Source: a virus. Taken from it: 28,430 nucleotides of DNA. The translations under genes and the position numbers were made by a program. This document shows positions 4,567 to 10,253 of this stretch, piece after piece (within the stretch, counting starts at the first letter, position 1; every line of letters begins with the position of its first letter). A model generated the notes under the pieces. That model was not told the origin of the DNA. It did no database searches and worked only from the letters and a program-made list of their open reading frames with translations. Location: positions 1-28,430 of IMG/VR virus record IMGVR_UViG_3300047554_000118; one strand, 5' to 3'.

Positions 4567-4581
4567 TATTTATTATTTATC
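4567..4581 (-). promoter_or_regulatory. Tandem candidate late promoters upstream of gp13 (GATAAATAATAAATA)
   Basis: The minus strand carries GATAAATA and AATAAATA overlapping in tandem, 18-32 bases before the gp13 start and covering the TAA stop of the asparagine-synthase-like gene. Both differ from the T4 late consensus TATAAATA only at the first base. They would start transcription close to gp13, so the more distal copy fits the spacing better. Confidence 0.5.
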
Positions 4582-5614
4582 CAGTAAAAATGTTCTGATA
4601 GTCGTCTAGTAAGAACAACCACTCAGGCTCATGGATAGAAAACGTTGAAATCTTTTTTGGTTTATTTCTAGCATAGTGTTCCATACCTCGATCTGCTAGA
4701 AAGTCTCTCATCTGCCATCTGTGTGTAAAAGAGTCGCCTTTAACTTTTGTAAATGGTTCGTTGGTGCTAATAGCCCACTGCTGAAATTCAGTAGAATCAA
4801 AAAACCCATGAATCATTTTAGCTTTTTCTGGGCTAAGAAGAATCTTGTGTTCGTATATCGCTGTATACCAGTCTAGGTTAAAAATGCAATACCATCTAAG
4901 GTCTGCAATAGTTTCTATTTTTCTTGGTGAAGTTTGAATAATTGGGTTTAAAAATTCAAGCAAGTCTTCATTAACATTACCGATATAAGACTCATATATC
5001 GTTTCTTTGTTACCTAGTGTATGATGAAACATAGCCTTATCGCCAGTAGCAAACATATCATCAGTTGGTCCGAACAATTGATTACCACACATACCACTAA
5101 CAAAGATAGAATCATCAGTATTGTGAAAGCTAAAGTTATTTCTGGCTCCAACCCTAATATCAAATAAGAAATCGTTCTTTATCTTAGATTCAAAAAGATC
5201 GCCAGATTCTATGATAGAATTATATGTGCCGAATACCCTTACTTGATCTTTATCTACAGCAAACTCTTTTAAAATGTAAAGAATATATGTACTGTCGATG
5301 CCACCAGACCACATAACATTAATTTTTTTACCAGTAGATAGAAGTTCTTTAGCTCGACGCTCTGCAACTTCATGAAAGCTAGTGTTATAGTTTTCTACTC
5401 GTTTTGGGATTGGATGAAGGTTTGGAGTTATATCGAGAAAGTGTTTCAGGTTTCCAGTCCTATCATAAACAGCATTATGCTTGTTTAGACCGAACCACTC
5501 ATAACTCTCGAATACATCTCTTGTATTAGCTAAGAATGGTGTTGACTCTATTGTTTCTCGACTTCCAGTTAGAAGTTCTGATATTAGTTGTGGGTTATAA
5601 TATAAAATAGACAT
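4577..5614 (-). CDS. Asparagine synthase-like PP-loop ATP pyrophosphatase without a glutaminase domain
   Basis: This is a 345-residue predicted ATP-dependent, AMP-forming ligase of the asparagine synthase/PP-loop superfamily. The PP-loop is clear at 99-109 (NVMWSGGIDST), and a second nucleotide-site segment, SGMCGNQLFGPTDDMF (173-188), is analogous to the Asn-synthase GADELFGGY region. A helix-rich C-terminus with DSTEFQQWAI near 272-281 fits the family. The first ~85 residues do not begin with the catalytic Cys2 of Ntn-type glutaminases and are too short for that domain, so glutamine hydrolysis is not encoded here. Family members amidate Asp, sugars or peptides or close lactams (lasso-peptide cyclases). 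The substrate cannot be read from sequence. It lies 40 bases after the DctP-like gene, with a hairpin between, and ends at the gp13 promoter region. It may modify a virion protein, or host surface sugars as suggested for other phage copies. Confidence 0.75.
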   Translation of the reverse strand: MSILYYNPQLISELLTGSRETIESTPFLANTRDVFESYEWFGLNKHNAVYDRTGNLKHFLDITPNLHPIPKRVENYNTSFHEVAERRAKELLSTGKKINVMWSGGIDSTYILYILKEFAVDKDQVRVFGTYNSIIESGDLFESKIKNDFLFDIRVGARNNFSFHNTDDSIFVSGMCGNQLFGPTDDMFATGDKAMFHHTLGNKETIYESYIGNVNEDLLEFLNPIIQTSPRKIETIADLRWYCIFNLDWYTAIYEHKILLSPEKAKMIHGFFDSTEFQQWAISTNEPFTKVKGDSFTHRWQMRDFLADRGMEHYARNKPKKISTFSIHEPEWLFLLDDYQNIFTG

Positions 5615-5631
5615 AGTGCCTCTAAGGAATC

Positions 5632-5652
5632 AAGGGAGCCGAAGCTCCCCTT
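5632..5652 (-). terminator. UUCG-loop hairpin between the DctP-like gene and the Asn-synthase-like gene
   Basis: On the minus strand GGGAGC-TTCG-GCTCCC forms a 6-bp GC-rich stem with the very stable UUCG tetraloop. Two further A-T pairs extend it beyond one bulged G. The following bases (TTGATTCCTT) are only moderately U-rich, so it is either a leaky terminator or, as for T4 intercistronic UUCG hairpins, an mRNA 3'-end stabiliser. It would lower expression of the downstream gene relative to the upstream one. Confidence 0.6.
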
Positions 5653-5654
5653 TA

Positions 5655-6602
5655 TCATTGCAATTTAATTTTTTCTACTAATCCAGGTGAGAAGTAGTCT
5701 TGAAATTTATCATATACTGTAGAAGTGATTTCTCTAAACTTAGATTCTTCTTCTTCACTCATCTTGACAACTTGAATGTCATTTTGTTTACATTGTTCAA
5801 GAATATTTGGGATATCAGCAACAGACTCTTTACGCTCTTGACGCGCTGCGTTAAATGCAGCAGTAGTCATAATCTTCTGAGTCTTTTTATCAAATTGCTT
5901 AAAGAAGTCTTGATTAACAATAATAGAAGTTAAGAACAAGCTATGTGATGTTTCGTTAACTATCTTGAAAGACTTATATTGATCTAATGGGAAAACACGA
6001 ACGTATGTAGACTCACCTGCAGCAATCTCGCCTTTGTCTGCATACTGGTTCATTTCTTCCAAAGTGATATCTTCGCGTGGAATAGAACCAAGAGCCTTAA
6101 ATGTTTCAACGGCAACTGGAGAACGAGAAGTTCTAACCACTTTACCTTTCCATGCATCTACAGTGTTTGCAGCAAATGTAGATGGAACAATACGGTAACC
6201 ACCAGAGTATGTAAATGACATAGCTTTAATGTTGGAATTCTTAGAAACCCCAGCCAATAGTTCTGTGCCAACTTCACCTTCTAGAACACGGTCAGCGTGT
6301 TCATGATCTTTGAACAAAAACGGCAGATCAAATGCATGTAGATCTTTGTTGTAGTCGCCAAGCCAAGTAGTGTAGATGTGAGACATCTCAATCTTACCTG
6401 TATTGATTAAATCCATAAGATCGTATTTTGTTACTTTCTTACCATCGTTATATTTTTCAGCATAGTCAGAAAGAGACAAAACTTCGATGTCAAACGCACC
6501 GTCCGTTTTCTCGTTAACTTCTTTTGCAAATCGTTCAGCTACCTTCAAAAACAAGCCGATTGGCTCGTGGGCGATAACCCATTTGACATGTTTAGTAGTC
6601 AT
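5655..6602 (-). CDS. TRAP-type (DctP, SBP family 7) solute-binding protein lacking a signal peptide
   Basis: This 315-residue protein has the fold signature of the periplasmic binding subunit of TRAP transporters, which capture carboxylates or related organic acids. Recognisable parts are the N-terminal strand and helix (WVIAHEPIGLFLKVAERFAK), the FDLPFLFKDHEHADRVLEG block (91-109), GGYRIVP (134-140), and WKGKVVRTSRSPVAVETFKALGSIP starting near 151, with Arg157 at the family's conserved carboxylate-binding arginine. An EMNQYADKGEIAAGE segment follows. The start ATG overlaps the stop of the 100-residue gene (ATGA). The protein begins MTTKHVKWVIAHEP with no hydrophobic signal, so it should stay in the cytoplasm or enter the virion. 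No TRAP membrane subunits are encoded nearby. Transport is therefore unlikely; it may bind a small molecule or act as a structural or adaptor protein. Family call good, role unknown. Confidence 0.75.
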   Translation of the reverse strand: MTTKHVKWVIAHEPIGLFLKVAERFAKEVNEKTDGAFDIEVLSLSDYAEKYNDGKKVTKYDLMDLINTGKIEMSHIYTTWLGDYNKDLHAFDLPFLFKDHEHADRVLEGEVGTELLAGVSKNSNIKAMSFTYSGGYRIVPSTFAANTVDAWKGKVVRTSRSPVAVETFKALGSIPREDITLEEMNQYADKGEIAAGESTYVRVFPLDQYKSFKIVNETSHSLFLTSIIVNQDFFKQFDKKTQKIMTTAAFNAARQERKESVADIPNILEQCKQNDIQVVKMSEEEESKFREITSTVYDKFQDYFSPGLVEKIKLQ

Positions 6603-6901
6603 TTTAGTTCCTCTAAAACTTTGGTTTCAAAAAACCATTTTTCTGTTTGTGATTTTAAATCTATTTGCCTTCTTAAGAAGGGAGTTCTATTATTTATAAG
6701 AATCCTAATAATACTCTCTTCTGGAATTTCTTCTTTATTTAGGATCTGGGATGTCGGTATAACCGTATCTCTGTAACCATATTCCTTCGCAGAAGAGTCG
6801 TAAAAAAAGTAGTCCTTGACCGTGAATCCCTCACATCCACTTAGCGGAGATCTAGGGTACTGATTTATCTCGAATAGAAATTCATTAATATATGGTGTCA
6901 T
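6599..6901 (-). CDS. Unknown 100-residue protein coupled to the radical SAM gene
   Basis: I do not recognise this family. It encodes 100 residues, with one Cys near position 23, several aromatic residues in VKDYFFYDSSAKEYGYRD (28-45), and a charged C-terminal half containing RRQIDLKSQTEKWFFE. No membrane segment or signal is evident. It overlaps the radical SAM stop by 4 bases (ATGA) and the DctP-like start by 4 bases (ATGA), so it is translated as the middle of a three-gene coupled set. That placement suggests an accessory subunit or substrate-handling partner of the radical SAM enzyme. A peptide-recognition role like that of PqqD-type proteins is possible from size and location, but no motif supports it. 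Confidence 0.65.
   Translation of the reverse strand: MTPYINEFLFEINQYPRSPLSGCEGFTVKDYFFYDSSAKEYGYRDTVIPTSQILNKEEIPEESIIRILINNRTPFLRRQIDLKSQTEKWFFETKVLEELK
6691..6698 (-). promoter_or_regulatory. Perfect T4-type late promoter motif TATAAATA inside the 100-residue gene
   Basis: The minus strand reads TTATAAATAATAG, an exact match to the T4 late promoter core, about 90 bases before the DctP-like start. It could give extra expression of the DctP-like and PP-loop genes independent of the radical SAM gene. It lies in coding sequence (Ile-Asn-Asn codons), so a chance AT-rich match cannot be excluded. Confidence 0.4.
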
Positions 6902-8271
6902 ACAGATACGATCGGAATTACTTTTTTCTTGGTTTCGACTTTTCCATTAATCATCCAGAAAATGTCTTTTCTGTCTTGTCTTAGTGGTCCATCGATATAA
7001 ACTGGAATGTGTCCTGTTAAAATTTCAATAGCTGCGCAAAAAATGACAATGTTGTCGCTAAATGAGTTATCGCATGTGGCTTCCCATAATGGACCAGTTA
7101 AAAAGAAACAAGCACCTTTACAGATGTGTAACACAGGGCACTTAGAACATTCTTCTCGATCACTCCAATGCGTTCCTGTTTTTATCTCAATATTTTTAAG
7201 ATCTTTAACATTACCCAAGTGGTGTGAAATTCCAGATGGATTATGCGAAACTGTAGATACATTCTGGCAAGTTAAGACATTACCCTTTAAGTCTATAGCA
7301 ATATTTTCAGACTTGTCCATACCACATTTCTGAGATAAGGTTTCTTTTCTAACTCCAGTTTCCAGAGACTTAATAAAGTTACTTATTTTTGTTTGTATTG
7401 TGCTGTATCGAGTAACACTGTCTGCGCGAAGTTCGTCGAATGTAAATTTTCTATAGTTAATATGAGATTCATCATTCATTAGAGAGTTAGCAGTACCACC
7501 CTCGTCGTATGCGTCAATAAAAGTGCCTTCGCCGATTGATAGGTACTTTACATATTCTTCACCAAGTTCTTTTCTGATTAACTCTTCGAAAAATAATTGA
7601 ATGTTTTTACGGCTAATATTTTTGTTAGTTATCATAGAATTGAAACTAACACGACCTAGAGGAGCTAAAGTTTTATATGCGTAGATGATACCTTCTCTAC
7701 TGGATGGGTCATCTAGTGGGTCTGGACCGCGAATAAATTGACCAACCGCATCATGAGAAATACCAACAGTAAACCTTAAGTTGTTTAACCAATCAACCTT
7801 TTCTTTGTCTAGTAGACTACCATTAGTGATAATAGAAAATTCTGAGTTTGGATACTTAGCGCGAATTTCTTCAGCAAGAGGTTTCAAGGTCTTCCAATAT
7901 ACTAGAGGTTCACCACCCCAAAATTCAAAGTATCTATTCGAACCCTTACCGTCTTCTCCACCATCAAACCATGATGGTATTTGTTCTACAAATTCTTGAA
8001 TATCATTTGGGTTTGTAGAATCTGCGTGTGGCACAAATCTCTGATTGCAGTAATCACACTCGAAATTACAAGAAAGACCAAGCTGTATCTTAACAGTTTT
8101 TGGTGCCTTGCCAATTTCTAGTTTTTTCTGAGATTGTGGGAGATTGTTTATTCTAGTTTCGATGACAGCGGTGCCATCTTCCCATGTTAGGGTGCTAAAC
8201 GTAGAATTATAGATCAATTTTTTAGTTAGACCGTCTTTTGGGTTAACTGCTATTATTACAAATTTTGACAT
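6898..8271 (-). CDS. Radical SAM/SPASM domain enzyme (peptide or protein maturase type)
   Basis: This 457-residue enzyme uses S-adenosylmethionine and iron-sulfur clusters for radical chemistry. The CxxxCxxC site for the [4Fe-4S]-SAM cluster is SCNFECDYC (Cys68, Cys72, Cys75), followed by the SAM-binding FWGGEPL (117-123) and an IITNGSLL strand. The C-terminal SPASM domain is textbook in spacing: Cys316, then Gly330-x4-Cys335, then Cys375-x2-Cys378-x5-Cys384-x3-Cys388, with Cys400 and Cys412 downstream. SPASM enzymes typically modify peptides or proteins (sactipeptide thioethers, formylglycine, quinone cofactors). It is complete with no missing ligand. The start is supported by AAGGTATATA before ATG. 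It lies downstream of a tail fibre with a Cys-rich end and is coupled by ATGA to the next gene. The substrate is unproven, but finding it inside a virion operon suggests a structural protein target. Confidence 0.9.
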   Translation of the reverse strand: MSKFVIIAVNPKDGLTKKLIYNSTFSTLTWEDGTAVIETRINNLPQSQKKLEIGKAPKTVKIQLGLSCNFECDYCNQRFVPHADSTNPNDIQEFVEQIPSWFDGGEDGKGSNRYFEFWGGEPLVYWKTLKPLAEEIRAKYPNSEFSIITNGSLLDKEKVDWLNNLRFTVGISHDAVGQFIRGPDPLDDPSSREGIIYAYKTLAPLGRVSFNSMITNKNISRKNIQLFFEELIRKELGEEYVKYLSIGEGTFIDAYDEGGTANSLMNDESHINYRKFTFDELRADSVTRYSTIQTKISNFIKSLETGVRKETLSQKCGMDKSENIAIDLKGNVLTCQNVSTVSHNPSGISHHLGNVKDLKNIEIKTGTHWSDREECSKCPVLHICKGACFFLTGPLWEATCDNSFSDNIVIFCAAIEILTGHIPVYIDGPLRQDRKDIFWMINGKVETKKKVIPIVSV

Positions 8272-8289
8272 TATATACCTTAAATGAAA

Positions 8290-8310
8290 TTCTGGGGACT
8301 AGCCCCAGAA
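8290..8310 (-). terminator. 8-bp perfect hairpin between the 259-residue gene and the radical SAM gene
   Basis: The minus strand forms TTCTGGGG-CTAGT-CCCCAGAA, an uninterrupted 8-bp stem with a 5-base loop, followed by TTTCATTTAAGG. The T-run is short and broken, so termination may be partial. It lies downstream of a candidate late promoter motif, so it could also be a 5' leader hairpin of the radical SAM transcript. Confidence 0.55.
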
Positions 8311-8313
8311 GTG

Positions 8314-8321
8314 TATTTATC
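8314..8321 (-). promoter_or_regulatory. Candidate late promoter before the radical SAM gene (GATAAATA)
   Basis: The minus strand reads TTGATAAATACAC, one base from the T4 late core TATAAATA, and it overlaps the TGA stop of the 259-residue gene. The distance to the radical SAM start is about 43 bases, suitable for a late promoter with a short leader containing the hairpin. The overlap of stop codon and motif matches those before gp13 and before the DUF4815 gene. Confidence 0.5.
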
Positions 8322-9099
8322 AAGAAATTGTTATGGTAAAATCAGCTATACCTGTGTATTTTCTATGACCAGCCTTAACTCTCACTAAGTCTCCAACATC
8401 CATACCAGTAGTTAAAAGTTTAAACGAACCAGAACCATTGGTTAATGGCACTCTAAGTTTATTTGGAATTCCATAAACTTGCTCTAAATAAACTTCCTTG
8501 ACAGTAGGGCTAGAAGAAACATCAATAGTAATACTAGAGTCTACTCCGACAGAAGACTGTGTAGAAGATAATGTCACTGGAGCTATTAGATCTCTAGTGA
8601 AACGAACTGTTTCGCTTGTGACATGTTGAGCAGATGGACCTTCTACGATATAATCTACATCATCGCTATCTTTGATAACATATGTAAAGTCCGTGAAATC
8701 TCCCTCAGAATCTTCAACGAAAATTCCAAACGGTGTGTAGAAAAAACCAGATTCCTGAGAATACCCTTGTTTCTTAGAGACTAGTGTTTCTGCCAATAAA
8801 TCTATGACCATTGGAGCAGAAACTGGATGTTGTGTGTTGTTGCCCTCAGAATCTAGTAATGGATAACAACTTTCTACAACAGTCCAAACAGATTGGTCGC
8901 AGAAACCTTTTGATGCCTTTAATGTTTGTAAAGACATTTCACACCAAAATATTTCTTTATACTCTCCGTCTTTATTGACAGAGACTTTAACTTCTAATAG
9001 CTCGGGTTGTATGTTTAAAAAAATCTTAGGCGGAGATAAATGATCACCTGATTCTTTATTAAAAATTGTATTTGGCGTTTTCGATCTAATAATTCTCAT
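8320..9099 (-). CDS. Unknown 259-residue protein downstream of the tail fibre, possibly virion-associated
   Basis: I do not recognise this family. The N-terminal part (1-165) is mixed and includes FYTPFGIFVEDSEGDFTDF and acidic stretches. The last ~90 residues (about 169-259) alternate beta-prone segments such as SSITIDVSS, VKEVYLEQV, NGSGSFKLL and YTGIADFTITIS, resembling an immunoglobulin-like or other beta-sandwich domain as found in many phage appendages. There is no signal peptide or membrane segment. It starts 8 bases after the fibre stop with an AAGGTAAT ribosome site, so it is cotranscribed with the fibre. Location and composition suggest a fibre-associated, chaperone or tip protein. 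That is inference. Confidence 0.65.
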   Translation of the reverse strand: MRIIRSKTPNTIFNKESGDHLSPPKIFLNIQPELLEVKVSVNKDGEYKEIFWCEMSLQTLKASKGFCDQSVWTVVESCYPLLDSEGNNTQHPVSAPMVIDLLAETLVSKKQGYSQESGFFYTPFGIFVEDSEGDFTDFTYVIKDSDDVDYIVEGPSAQHVTSETVRFTRDLIAPVTLSSTQSSVGVDSSITIDVSSSPTVKEVYLEQVYGIPNKLRVPLTNGSGSFKLLTTGMDVGDLVRVKAGHRKYTGIADFTITIS

Positions 9100-9107
9100 A
9101 GATTACC

Positions 9108-10253
9108 TTAACAGTTGCAGTTGCAGTTACAATTGTGAGCGCGAACAACCATGTTAGTTCCTTGTCTAATTGTATCATACCATTGTTGGTCATGTCCATA
9201 CAATCCTCGCTGGGCATTGCCCATACAGTTACCGAGCACACGCCCACCACCACCATCAACGAAGAAACCGTAGTTGCCTAAGTTGTTAACGAATTGAGAT
9301 AGGTGACCTGGACGACCTTGTACGTTACCCCATGGAGTCACTTCAGCATAGAATGCATATCCAACGTTAGTTACGCTAACTGCTCCAGTGTTACCTTGAA
9401 CAGATGTAACTGGGACTGAGACTACAACTGCGCCAGTGTTACCTTGAACAGATGTAACATGAGCAGAAACTGTTGGATTACCAGCAACACCATCTCCGTT
9501 AGAAACTGTAATACCACCACCAGCAACAATAGTTCTTGTTGCCATGGTACCAGTACCAGTTCTTGAAAGCATACCAGTTGTAGTCAAACCAGACAGAGCA
9601 GACAAGTCAGAGTCGAATGGTTGAACATCAGTACCGATTGTTAGACCAAGAGTGGCGCGAGCAGTAACTGCATCGCCATCGTCTAACAAAGTTCTAGCAT
9701 AAGGGGTCAGGCTAGTTGTTGTAGCAGTTCCTAGACCTGTATAGTAAGGTAATGTATTAGCAGCAGATGTTGTTGCTGCTAATGCGTCTAACTCTAGATT
9801 CCACGCTTGTACATCAGAACCAATGGCTAGACCCAAGTTAGTTCTAGCACCAGCTGATGTAGATGAGCCAGTACCACCGTCTGCAATTGCCAAGTCTGTG
9901 ATACCTTGGATTAAACCACTGGTAATTGCTGCTTCGCCAGAATGCTTACCACTAAAATCTGTAGCTGTAATTACGTTTGCTTCAAAGTTACCTGAAGCAT
10001 CACGAACTACTGCAGAGCTTTTATCAGCACCAGCTGGTAGCAATACAGATGCACTATAACCATCTAGTAAGTCGGCATCTAAGCCAGAACCGCTTCCGTC
10101 AACTGTTTTAAGTTTAGTTAAGATATCAGCTGCATTATAATCAACAGCTGTTAATTTTGTGGCTAATTCGTTGTTCAGGTTACTAAAGTTTGCATCGACT
10201 TCAGCGTTAGTCAGCGGACTTCCTTTAGTACCTCTTAATGTAATAACTGCCAT
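9108..10253 (-). CDS. Tail fibre protein with C-terminal Asn-Cys repeat
   Basis: This is a 381-residue predicted trimeric tail or short fibre protein for host contact. The N-terminus [20 protein letters not shown], followed by ANFSNLN, is the type used by T4-like marine phage fibres for attachment. The shaft contains fibre repeats: [20 protein letters not shown] (about 126-145), a second [20 protein letters not shown], and two copies of [11 protein letters not shown]. The tip region (about 305-370) is rich in glycine and aromatics ([14 protein letters not shown]), ending [10 protein letters not shown]. The closing eight residues are four Asn-Cys pairs, unusual for a cytoplasm-assembled fibre and a possible site of metal binding or enzymatic modification. 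It lies at the position of the fibre/whisker genes between gp8 and gp13 in T4. The ribosome site is AAGGATCC upstream of the ATG. Confidence 0.85.
9111..9134 (-). repeat. Codons for the terminal (Asn-Cys)x4 of the tail fibre
   Basis: Four consecutive AAY-TGY codon pairs, mixing TGT and TGC and AAT and AAC, immediately precede the TAA stop. They encode N-C-N-C-N-C-N-C at residues 374-381. His373 precedes the run. The protein has only one other cysteine that I see (near the NCMGNAQRG segment), so the cysteines are concentrated at the end. Confidence 0.95.
9379..9458 (-). repeat. Direct repeat in the tail-fibre shaft, 48-bp period
   Basis: A 32-base segment at 9379-9410 recurs at 9427-9458 with one mismatch and encodes [11 protein letters not shown] twice. 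It is a typical fibre-shaft duplication and could expand or contract by slippage or recombination. Confidence 0.85.

What the first reader, a model, noticed from the sequence alone, without database searches (positions are those of the whole stretch)
4577..8271. Accessory enzyme cassette (radical SAM/SPASM, 100-aa protein, cytosolic DctP-like, PP-loop enzyme) inside a T4-like structural operon
Between the fibre block and gp13, exactly where T4 goes from 12/wac to 13, sit four genes not found in T4. The first three are joined by ATGA overlaps at 6898-6901 and 6599-6602, so they are translated as a set, and the fourth follows within 40 bases. A radical SAM maturase plus an ATP-pyrophosphatase is the enzyme pairing of peptide-modifying pathways, while a solute-binding protein without a signal peptide could supply or sense a small ligand. 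In a late virion operon, a modification system acting on a structural protein or on host surface polymers is plausible. To my knowledge this exact combination is not a named system.
Basis: partly seen in the sequence, partly recalled or inferred. Interest (0 to 1): 0.88.

Follow-up and report, generated by a model that had tools for sequence, protein, structure and literature searches.

The report
Enzyme cassette modifying phage tail-fibre tips
Next to the genes of its tail fibre this bacterial virus carries an enzyme of the kind that rebuilds peptides chemically, and across many viruses that enzyme travels with fibres ending in a Cys-Asn-Cys-Asn tail, which suggests that phages chemically finish the tips they touch their hosts with.

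Summary
The four genes are real, at the stated coordinates. The key lies 0.8 kb outside them: the upstream fibre gene (9108-10253) encodes a protein ending ...HNCNCNCNC. The radical SAM/SPASM gene is tied to such alternating-Cys proteins. Of 106 IMG/VR contigs found by an NCNCNC-stop DNA pattern alone, 74 carry it on a fibre-like or short ORF; 62 also hold the enzyme gene, and the other 12 end 72-1420 bp past the tail. Of 112 loci found by the enzyme alone, 96 have an alternating-Cys protein within 5.2 kb; far regions do in 9 of 71 loci. Carriers differ: long fibres, 74-173 aa proteins (some in tandem), and fibres whose motif runs into a Hint-type domain. Best explanation: a RiPP-like maturase modifies the fibre's Cys/Asn tail, probably by Cys thioethers; action and chemistry are inferred. 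The 100-aa, DctP-like and PP-loop genes are a separable set: 11 of 66 full-set loci (3 of 34 clusters) show no radical SAM gene. Oxygenase-like genes or a flavin halogenase lie there in other loci. I found no paper describing it.

The parts
9108..10253 (-). tail-fibre protein (381 aa), proposed substrate; its only five Cys are residue 343 (GNC) and 375, 377, 379, 381 in the C-terminal (NC)4 tail
   Evidence: (tail-fibre PHROGs)
9108..9134 (-). codons of the C-terminal tail NCNCNCNC plus stop: proposed site of modification
   Evidence: CNCNC-TAA occurs once in the window, none in 100 shuffles
8320..9099 (-). 259-aa protein, two beta domains, C-terminal Ig-like domain; frequent partner of the radical SAM gene
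   Evidence: 91 of 112 loci; pLDDT 92.9; residues 173-259 to intimin, Z 10.7, rmsd 1.9, 84 aligned
6898..8271 (-). radical SAM/SPASM maturase (CNFECDYC; auxiliary-cluster Cys set), phrog_1802
6599..6901 (-). 100-aa protein, confident predicted fold without a PDB match found; set with DctP and PP-loop
5655..6602 (-). DctP-type solute-binding protein without signal peptide
4577..5614 (-). PP-loop (SGGIDS) ATP-pyrophosphatase-like enzyme, weak resemblance to asparagine synthase

Best explanation
A fibre-tip maturation system that works like a RiPP pathway. The radical SAM/SPASM enzyme made from the late operon acts on the C-terminal (NC)4 tail of the fibre encoded just upstream, using the fibre body as its 'leader', before the fibre is built into the virion. 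Most likely product (inferred, about 45% within this explanation): carbon-sulphur thioethers between the alternating Cys and neighbouring Asn carbons, giving a rigid, redox-stable ladder at the receptor-binding tip. The 259-aa Ig-domain protein is probably a virion partner or cap of that tip. The 100-aa/DctP/PP-loop set is an optional second tailoring step (ATP-dependent activation of a carboxyl or amide, perhaps with a small acid bound by the DctP protein), in the neighbourhood that 2OG-Fe(II) oxygenase-like genes or a flavin halogenase occupy in other loci. Shown: gene identities, tail, linkage, carrier diversity, Hint fusions. Inferred: that the enzyme acts on the tail, the chemistry, the role in adsorption, the role of the trio.
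For: Tail to enzyme: of 106 IMG/VR contigs found only by NCNCNC-TAA, 74 have it ending a fibre-like or short ORF; 62 of 74 hold the radical SAM gene, the other 12 are cut 72-1420 bp past the tail (whole-record checks). As clusters at 90% identity: 41 of 48, the other 7 all cut. Enzyme to tail: of 112 radical-SAM-selected loci 96 have an (xC)3+ protein on the same strand within 5.2 kb; far control 9 of 71; as clusters 73 of 81, 5 without, 3 too short. A sample chosen for neither (32 of 80 loci found by a neck protein): radical SAM in 5, each with an alternating-Cys protein beside it; in the other 27 the tail pattern matched only twice, both antisense to predicted genes. Tail and enzyme stay together on different carriers: fibres of 357-442 aa, 74-173 aa proteins, two or three in tandem at some loci, one 1082-aa fibre (L124), and 9 loci with the motif running straight into CFPAGT or a variant (L001, L002, L172, L179, L206, L210-L212, L221; Pfam Hom_end_hint 3e-12 for L002), so that autoproteolysis would free the tail's C-terminus. 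The enzyme is of SPASM type; the NCBIfam rows shown include PapB, Nif11, DynA, QhpD and SCIFF maturases. Tailoring-type enzymes lie next to it in other loci.
Against: No biochemical or mass data. No recognisable RRE: the 100-aa and 259-aa models are beta-rich. No NCBIfam maturase model reaches its cut-off (25 of 42 rows seen). Six radical SAM loci with enough upstream sequence lack an (xC)3 protein (L015 and L016 have NCRNCNC; in L166, L189, L201 and L204 I saw none). Eleven contigs have NCNCNC ends on other proteins without a radical SAM gene in the stretch (7 of the 11 searched as whole records, 0 with it), so such an end does not need the enzyme. The trio occurs without radical SAM.
Confidence: 0.72

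Rival explanations
1. The (NC)n tail is a metal- or disulphide-stabilised needle like the HxH iron needle of T4 gp37 (recalled), needing no covalent change; the radical SAM enzyme acts on something else in the same module, for example the 259-aa partner.
For: Alternating residues in a trimeric beta needle would line up Cys on one face (inference). Other NCNCNC-ending proteins occur without the enzyme.
Against: The enzyme follows the tail across different carriers and gene orders; the 259-aa family has no hit near the enzyme in 21 of 112 loci, among them both Achromobacter phages and most Hint-fused loci.
Confidence: 0.12
2. The enzyme is an anaerobic-sulfatase-maturase-like oxidase that turns Cys of the tail into formylglycine, giving an aldehyde-bearing tip that reacts with host surface amines.
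For: Second-best NCBIfam row is TIGR03942 (3.9e-16); the PDB profile search aligns anSME 4k36/4k37 over profile positions 71-391 of 462.
Against: 59.1 bits against a cut-off of 349.45. The aligned anSME segment reads YPCDF where this family has TCQN, with the Gln invariant in 23 of 23; that this Asp is the anSME catalytic base is recalled. No CxPxR-type site in the tail, by eye.
Confidence: 0.07
3. The radical SAM enzyme epimerises or otherwise modifies alternate residues (polytheonamide-like, recalled), giving an alternating D/L helix.
For: Strict alternation of the motif; the epimerase YydG is a distant profile hit (E 2e-6; its reaction is named in an abstract start, PMC7026026).
Against: Cys at every second position is kept while the spacer varies (N, D, A, V, T, R, Q, E), which fits Cys being the reactive residue.
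Confidence: 0.08
4. For the 100-aa/DctP/PP-loop genes only: an independent auxiliary small-molecule set that merely shares the hypervariable host-recognition region with the fibre system.
For: Trio present without radical SAM in 11 of 66 full-trio loci (3 of 34 clusters); 0 of 24 trio-, DctP- or PP-loop-bearing records searched whole had a radical SAM hit (some of these are cut at a contig end beside the trio, e.g. L327, L329). The PP-loop family has tandem paralogues elsewhere (L377, L380).
Against: Where radical SAM is present the trio is mostly directly beside it, often with overlapping genes; trio and oxygenase-like genes rarely coexist (0 of 164 loci; 2 of 107 representatives), though the phylogeny-aware test is not significant (median p 0.25).
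Confidence: 0.4

Closest known systems
SPASM radical SAM RiPP maturases (ranthipeptide PapB, SCIFF, Nif11, Cys-rich families)
   Same: CX3CX2C core, SPASM domain, Cys-rich substrate candidate encoded beside the enzyme, extra tailoring-type enzymes at some loci
   Different: candidate substrate is the C-terminus of a virion fibre, not a small secreted peptide; no RRE, export or peptidase gene noticed; below every maturase cut-off shown
QhpD and anSME: radical SAM maturases of whole proteins (recalled)
   Same: act on a protein, not a free peptide; sequence similarity
   Different: different partner; anSME Asp replaced by invariant Gln
T4 gp37 HxH iron needle tip (recalled)
   Same: alternating metal- or thiol-type residues at the tip of a fibre
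   Different: Cys instead of His, extreme C-terminus, linked enzyme
Host recognition cluster of pelagimyophages (PMC7029224; passages read)
   Different: in the passages read no substrate, tail or function is proposed
Radical SAM genes of Campylobacter T4-like phages (PMC3322345; passages read)
   Different: only 27% of the query aligned, at about 28% identity

Membership tests
SPASM radical SAM protein | CX3CX2C core and SPASM Cys set above family cut-off | tested here: met
   PF04055 38.1 bits (cut-off 29.5); TIGR04085 34.5 (cut-off 27); the Cys invariant in 23 sequences
PapB ranthipeptide maturase NF047865 | score over curated cut-off | tested here: not met
   60.8 against 340 bits
PapB ranthipeptide maturase NF047865 | thioether at Cbeta/Cgamma of the acceptor (recalled) | not testable with these tools
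   needs MS or NMR
Anaerobic sulfatase maturase TIGR03942 | score over cut-off, and catalytic Asp after the SPASM Cys (recalled) | tested here: not met
   59.1 against 349.45 bits; Gln in 23 of 23
RiPP biosynthetic cluster | precursor with Cys-rich core encoded beside the maturase | tested here: met
   (NC)4 tail 0.8 kb upstream; linkage; that it is the substrate is inferred
RiPP biosynthetic cluster | RRE domain | tested here: inconclusive
   100-aa and 259-aa predicted folds are beta-rich; the enzyme's own N-terminus was not modelled
RiPP biosynthetic cluster | release of the core by proteolysis | tested here: inconclusive
   none noticed in the window; Hint-type fusions in 9 other loci would free the tail's C-terminus, not the peptide
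DctP TRAP solute-binding protein | family profile | tested here: met
   PF03480 148.6 bits, cut-off 23.4; TIGR00787 114.2 is below its cut-off 175.05
DctP TRAP solute-binding protein | signal peptide for the periplasm | tested here: not met
   sequence begins MTTKHVKWVIAHEPIG; read by eye, no predictor run
Asparagine synthase | PF00733 over cut-off | tested here: not met
   14 against 21 bits

The most novel reading that the evidence does not exclude
Many phages and prophages build their receptor-binding tips as virion-embedded RiPPs: a ribosomal Cys/Asn ladder at the fibre C-terminus is cross-linked by a dedicated radical SAM enzyme and further hydroxylated, halogenated or conjugated by swappable cassettes (2OG-Fe(II) oxygenases, flavin halogenase, DctP/PP-loop set), giving a chemically modified adhesive tip outside the 20 standard amino acids.
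Probability: 0.5. Interest if true: 0.93.

Novelty: new variant of a known kind. Interest (0 to 1): 0.85.

Why it matters
Receptor-binding tips decide host range and are usually read as plain protein. A conserved maturase-substrate pair at the tip would mean that structure prediction from sequence misses the part that touches the host, that such fibres cannot be studied in recombinant form without their enzyme, and that a reservoir of protein-modifying enzymes sits in host-recognition regions. It also gives phrog_1802 a testable substrate.

Tried and rejected
An obligate four-gene unit: rejected, since the trio occurs without radical SAM and radical SAM without the trio. The 100-aa or the 259-aa protein as RRE: predicted folds are beta-rich; for the 100-aa model the best Foldseek match in the PDB has E 0.3 and none of 652 chains reaches VIA Z 2, which does not show a new fold. 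A close cultured relative: tblastn in 50,697 phage records gave 61 records for the radical SAM protein, with full-length matches in 3 only (Achromobacter phage 2-1 and JWF, JWF under two accessions; 42-43.5%), nothing for the PP-loop or 100-aa proteins, and 7 records for DctP at 21-26%. Trio/oxygenase exclusivity as proof of shared function: Fisher p 2e-9 on 107 representatives, but the phylogeny-aware pair test is not significant. A difference in tail endings between trio and oxygenase loci: my regular expression miscounted some ends, so it is not used. NCNCNC ends as always radical-SAM-linked: 11 contigs with other proteins go against it. Papers: eight searches in a CC-licensed library without preprints; the listings were capped in five of them; no listed title or abstract start links radical SAM to fibre tails. 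Beyond listings I read only passages of two papers.

Caveats on counts: in my scripts the labels 'gp13' and 'gp14' are swapped (P0009 is the PF11649 neck protein, P0006 the phrog_211 adaptor). In one search, L080 is counted as lacking radical SAM although saw its first 43 codons at the contig end. Many loci are near-copies or the same contig fetched twice (the 164 loci, the 66); one search gives counts as clusters. Of the 80 loci, 32 were searched as whole records, chosen for length. In the 27 negative records, 15 of 20 CxCxCxC matches were checked for frame (longest open frame 68 codons). One search left out L003 (the window) and loci whose best radical SAM score was 200 bits or less; its near and far regions differ in size. 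Only 1 of 5 oxygenase-like representatives passes a Pfam cut-off. The tree is a quick one with a few very long branches.
Full report
OBSERVATION. The four ORFs, their overlaps and their place between the fibre block and the neck genes are as described. Identities hold for the radical SAM/SPASM protein and the DctP-like protein; the PP-loop call rests on the SGGIDS motif and a sub-threshold Asn_synthase match (the PDB profile's best row is a nitrile synthetase, E 0.005 over 33 residues). The 100-aa protein has no family match.

THE MISSING PIECE. The gene cluster starts earlier than the finding. The fibre at 9108-10253 ends ...[13 protein letters not shown]; its only other Cys is residue 343. 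Between it and the radical SAM gene is a 259-aa gene (8320-9099). A DNA pattern for CNCNC-TAA occurs once in the window and in none of 100 shuffles.

LINKAGE, TESTED IN BOTH DIRECTIONS. Of 112 loci with a radical SAM score over 200 bits, 96 have a same-strand ORF with three or more consecutive xC units within 5.2 kb; 10 more hold under 4.5 kb upstream; 6 lack it, two of them having NCRNCNC. Regions over 5.5 kb away show such an ORF in 9 of 71 loci. As clusters at 90% identity: 73 with, 5 without, 3 too short, of 81. (b) From the tail: a scan for NCNCNC-TAA gave 106 contigs. In 74 the pattern ends a fibre-like or short ORF; 62 of these contigs hold the enzyme (55 in the stretch, 7 elsewhere in the contig), and in the other 12 the contig ends 72-1420 bp after the tail. 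Eleven carry the end on other proteins, 21 have no ORF of 50 aa or more there. As clusters: 41 of 48 with the enzyme, the other 7 cut. Whole-record checks found the enzyme in 2 of 4 fibre records whose stretch had been too short, 0 of 7 records with other proteins, and 1 of 16 records with no ORF. (c) From neither: of 80 loci found by a neck protein, 32 records were searched whole; 5 have the enzyme, each with an alternating-Cys protein beside it, in one case CECQCQCQC on a 68-aa ORF next to a distant relative of the enzyme. In the other 27 the tail pattern matched twice, both antisense to the predicted genes.

DIFFERENT CARRIERS, SAME TAIL. Fibres of 357-442 aa in the T4-like contigs; proteins of 74-173 aa, two or three in tandem in L041, L091, L097, L110, L115, L118 and L138; a 1082-aa fibre (L124); Cys-rich 128-151 aa proteins (L174, L175, L426). 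In nine loci the motif runs straight into a CFPAGT-type start (L001, L002, L172, L179, L206, L210-L212, L221), recognised by Pfam in L002 (Hom_end_hint 3e-12) and below cut-off in L212; the others are by motif. Autoproteolysis there would leave the Cys motif as the new C-terminus, the same end state as in the window (inference).

THE ENZYME. 23 diverse sequences keep CX3CX2C, the SPASM Cys and a QKCxMD...TCQN block. The NCBIfam rows shown (25 of 42) are mostly peptide or protein maturases, best PapB, none over its cut-off apart from the SPASM domain model. The anSME alignment has Asp where this family has an invariant Gln.

THE PARTNERS. The 259-aa family lies within 5.2 kb of the enzyme in 91 of 112 enzyme-selected loci; the 21 without a hit include cut loci, both Achromobacter phages and most Hint-fused loci. 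Its model is confident (pLDDT 92.9); residues 173-259 match Ig-like domains, best intimin (Z 10.7, rmsd 1.9, 84 aligned), which fits a virion adhesin or cap (inference). The 100-aa protein has a confident beta-rich model (pLDDT 87.5) without a PDB match found.

THE TRIO. The 100-aa, DctP and PP-loop genes occur together in 66 loci of the DctP- and PP-loop-based sets; 11 lack radical SAM in the stretch, or 3 of 34 clusters. These 11 loci lie on 9 contigs: 7 were searched whole, none with the enzyme, and 2 are held whole. None of all 24 records has it. So the trio is separable. In 57 of 164 radical SAM loci (near-copies included) an oxygenase-like gene of three clusters lies nearby, in 41 a trio gene, never both. 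Of five representatives one passes a 2OG-Fe(II) Pfam cut-off, four match below it. On 107 representatives with wider profiles: trio 37, oxygenase 46, both 2; each label needs at least 14 changes on the tree. Fisher p is 2e-9, but the phylogeny-aware pair test is not significant. Eight loci carry a halogenase-like gene (Pfam PF04820 1.3e-31 for the one tested).

MECHANISM. I commit to: the radical SAM enzyme modifies the Cys/Asn tail of the fibre. Thioether formation is my preferred chemistry because Cys is kept at every second position while the spacer varies, and because the best-matching family makes C-S bonds (recalled); this is inference. Function at the receptor-binding tip is inferred from position (last residues of a fibre in what PMC7029224 calls the host recognition cluster).

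NOVELTY. Radical SAM cassettes in this region were noted before (PMC7029224, passages) and radical SAM as an oddity of Campylobacter phages (PMC3322345, passages), without a substrate in the passages read. Eight searches listed nothing closer; preprints and most subscription journals were not covered.

Noticed in passing
window 5634-5649 and 8290-8310: Two GC-rich hairpins (GGGAGC-UUCG-GCUCCC after the DctP gene; TTCTGGGG-CTAGT-CCCCAGAA before the radical SAM gene) flank the first three genes; z-scores -1.4 and -1.75, so only weakly unusual.
   Followed up: partly
L425 (3902-9312): A T4-like phage with several radical SAM-type genes in a row beside a 68-aa ORF ending CECQCQCQCSRGTF, a Gln/Glu version of the tail.
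   Followed up: partly
L001/L002 6844-8295; L206, L210-L212: Alternating-Cys motif followed at once by a Hint-type start in fibres of Achromobacter phages and in Rhodospirillales loci.
   Followed up: partly
L075 5871-7073, L426 7662-8852: Flavin-dependent tryptophan-halogenase-like genes near the radical SAM gene (Pfam for L075; L426 by eye).
   Followed up: partly
L322, L340, L389, L405: Trio or DctP/PP-loop genes without radical SAM, near small membrane proteins resembling DUF2061 and, in L322 and L340, IscU-, IscA- and glutaredoxin-like genes (by eye; no family search).
   Followed up: no
L377, L380: Three to four tandem copies of the PP-loop family without a radical SAM gene in the stretch.
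   Followed up: no
L053, L056, L087, L105: Phage proteins of 184 and 202 aa that also end in NCNCNC but have no radical SAM gene in the record.
   Followed up: partly
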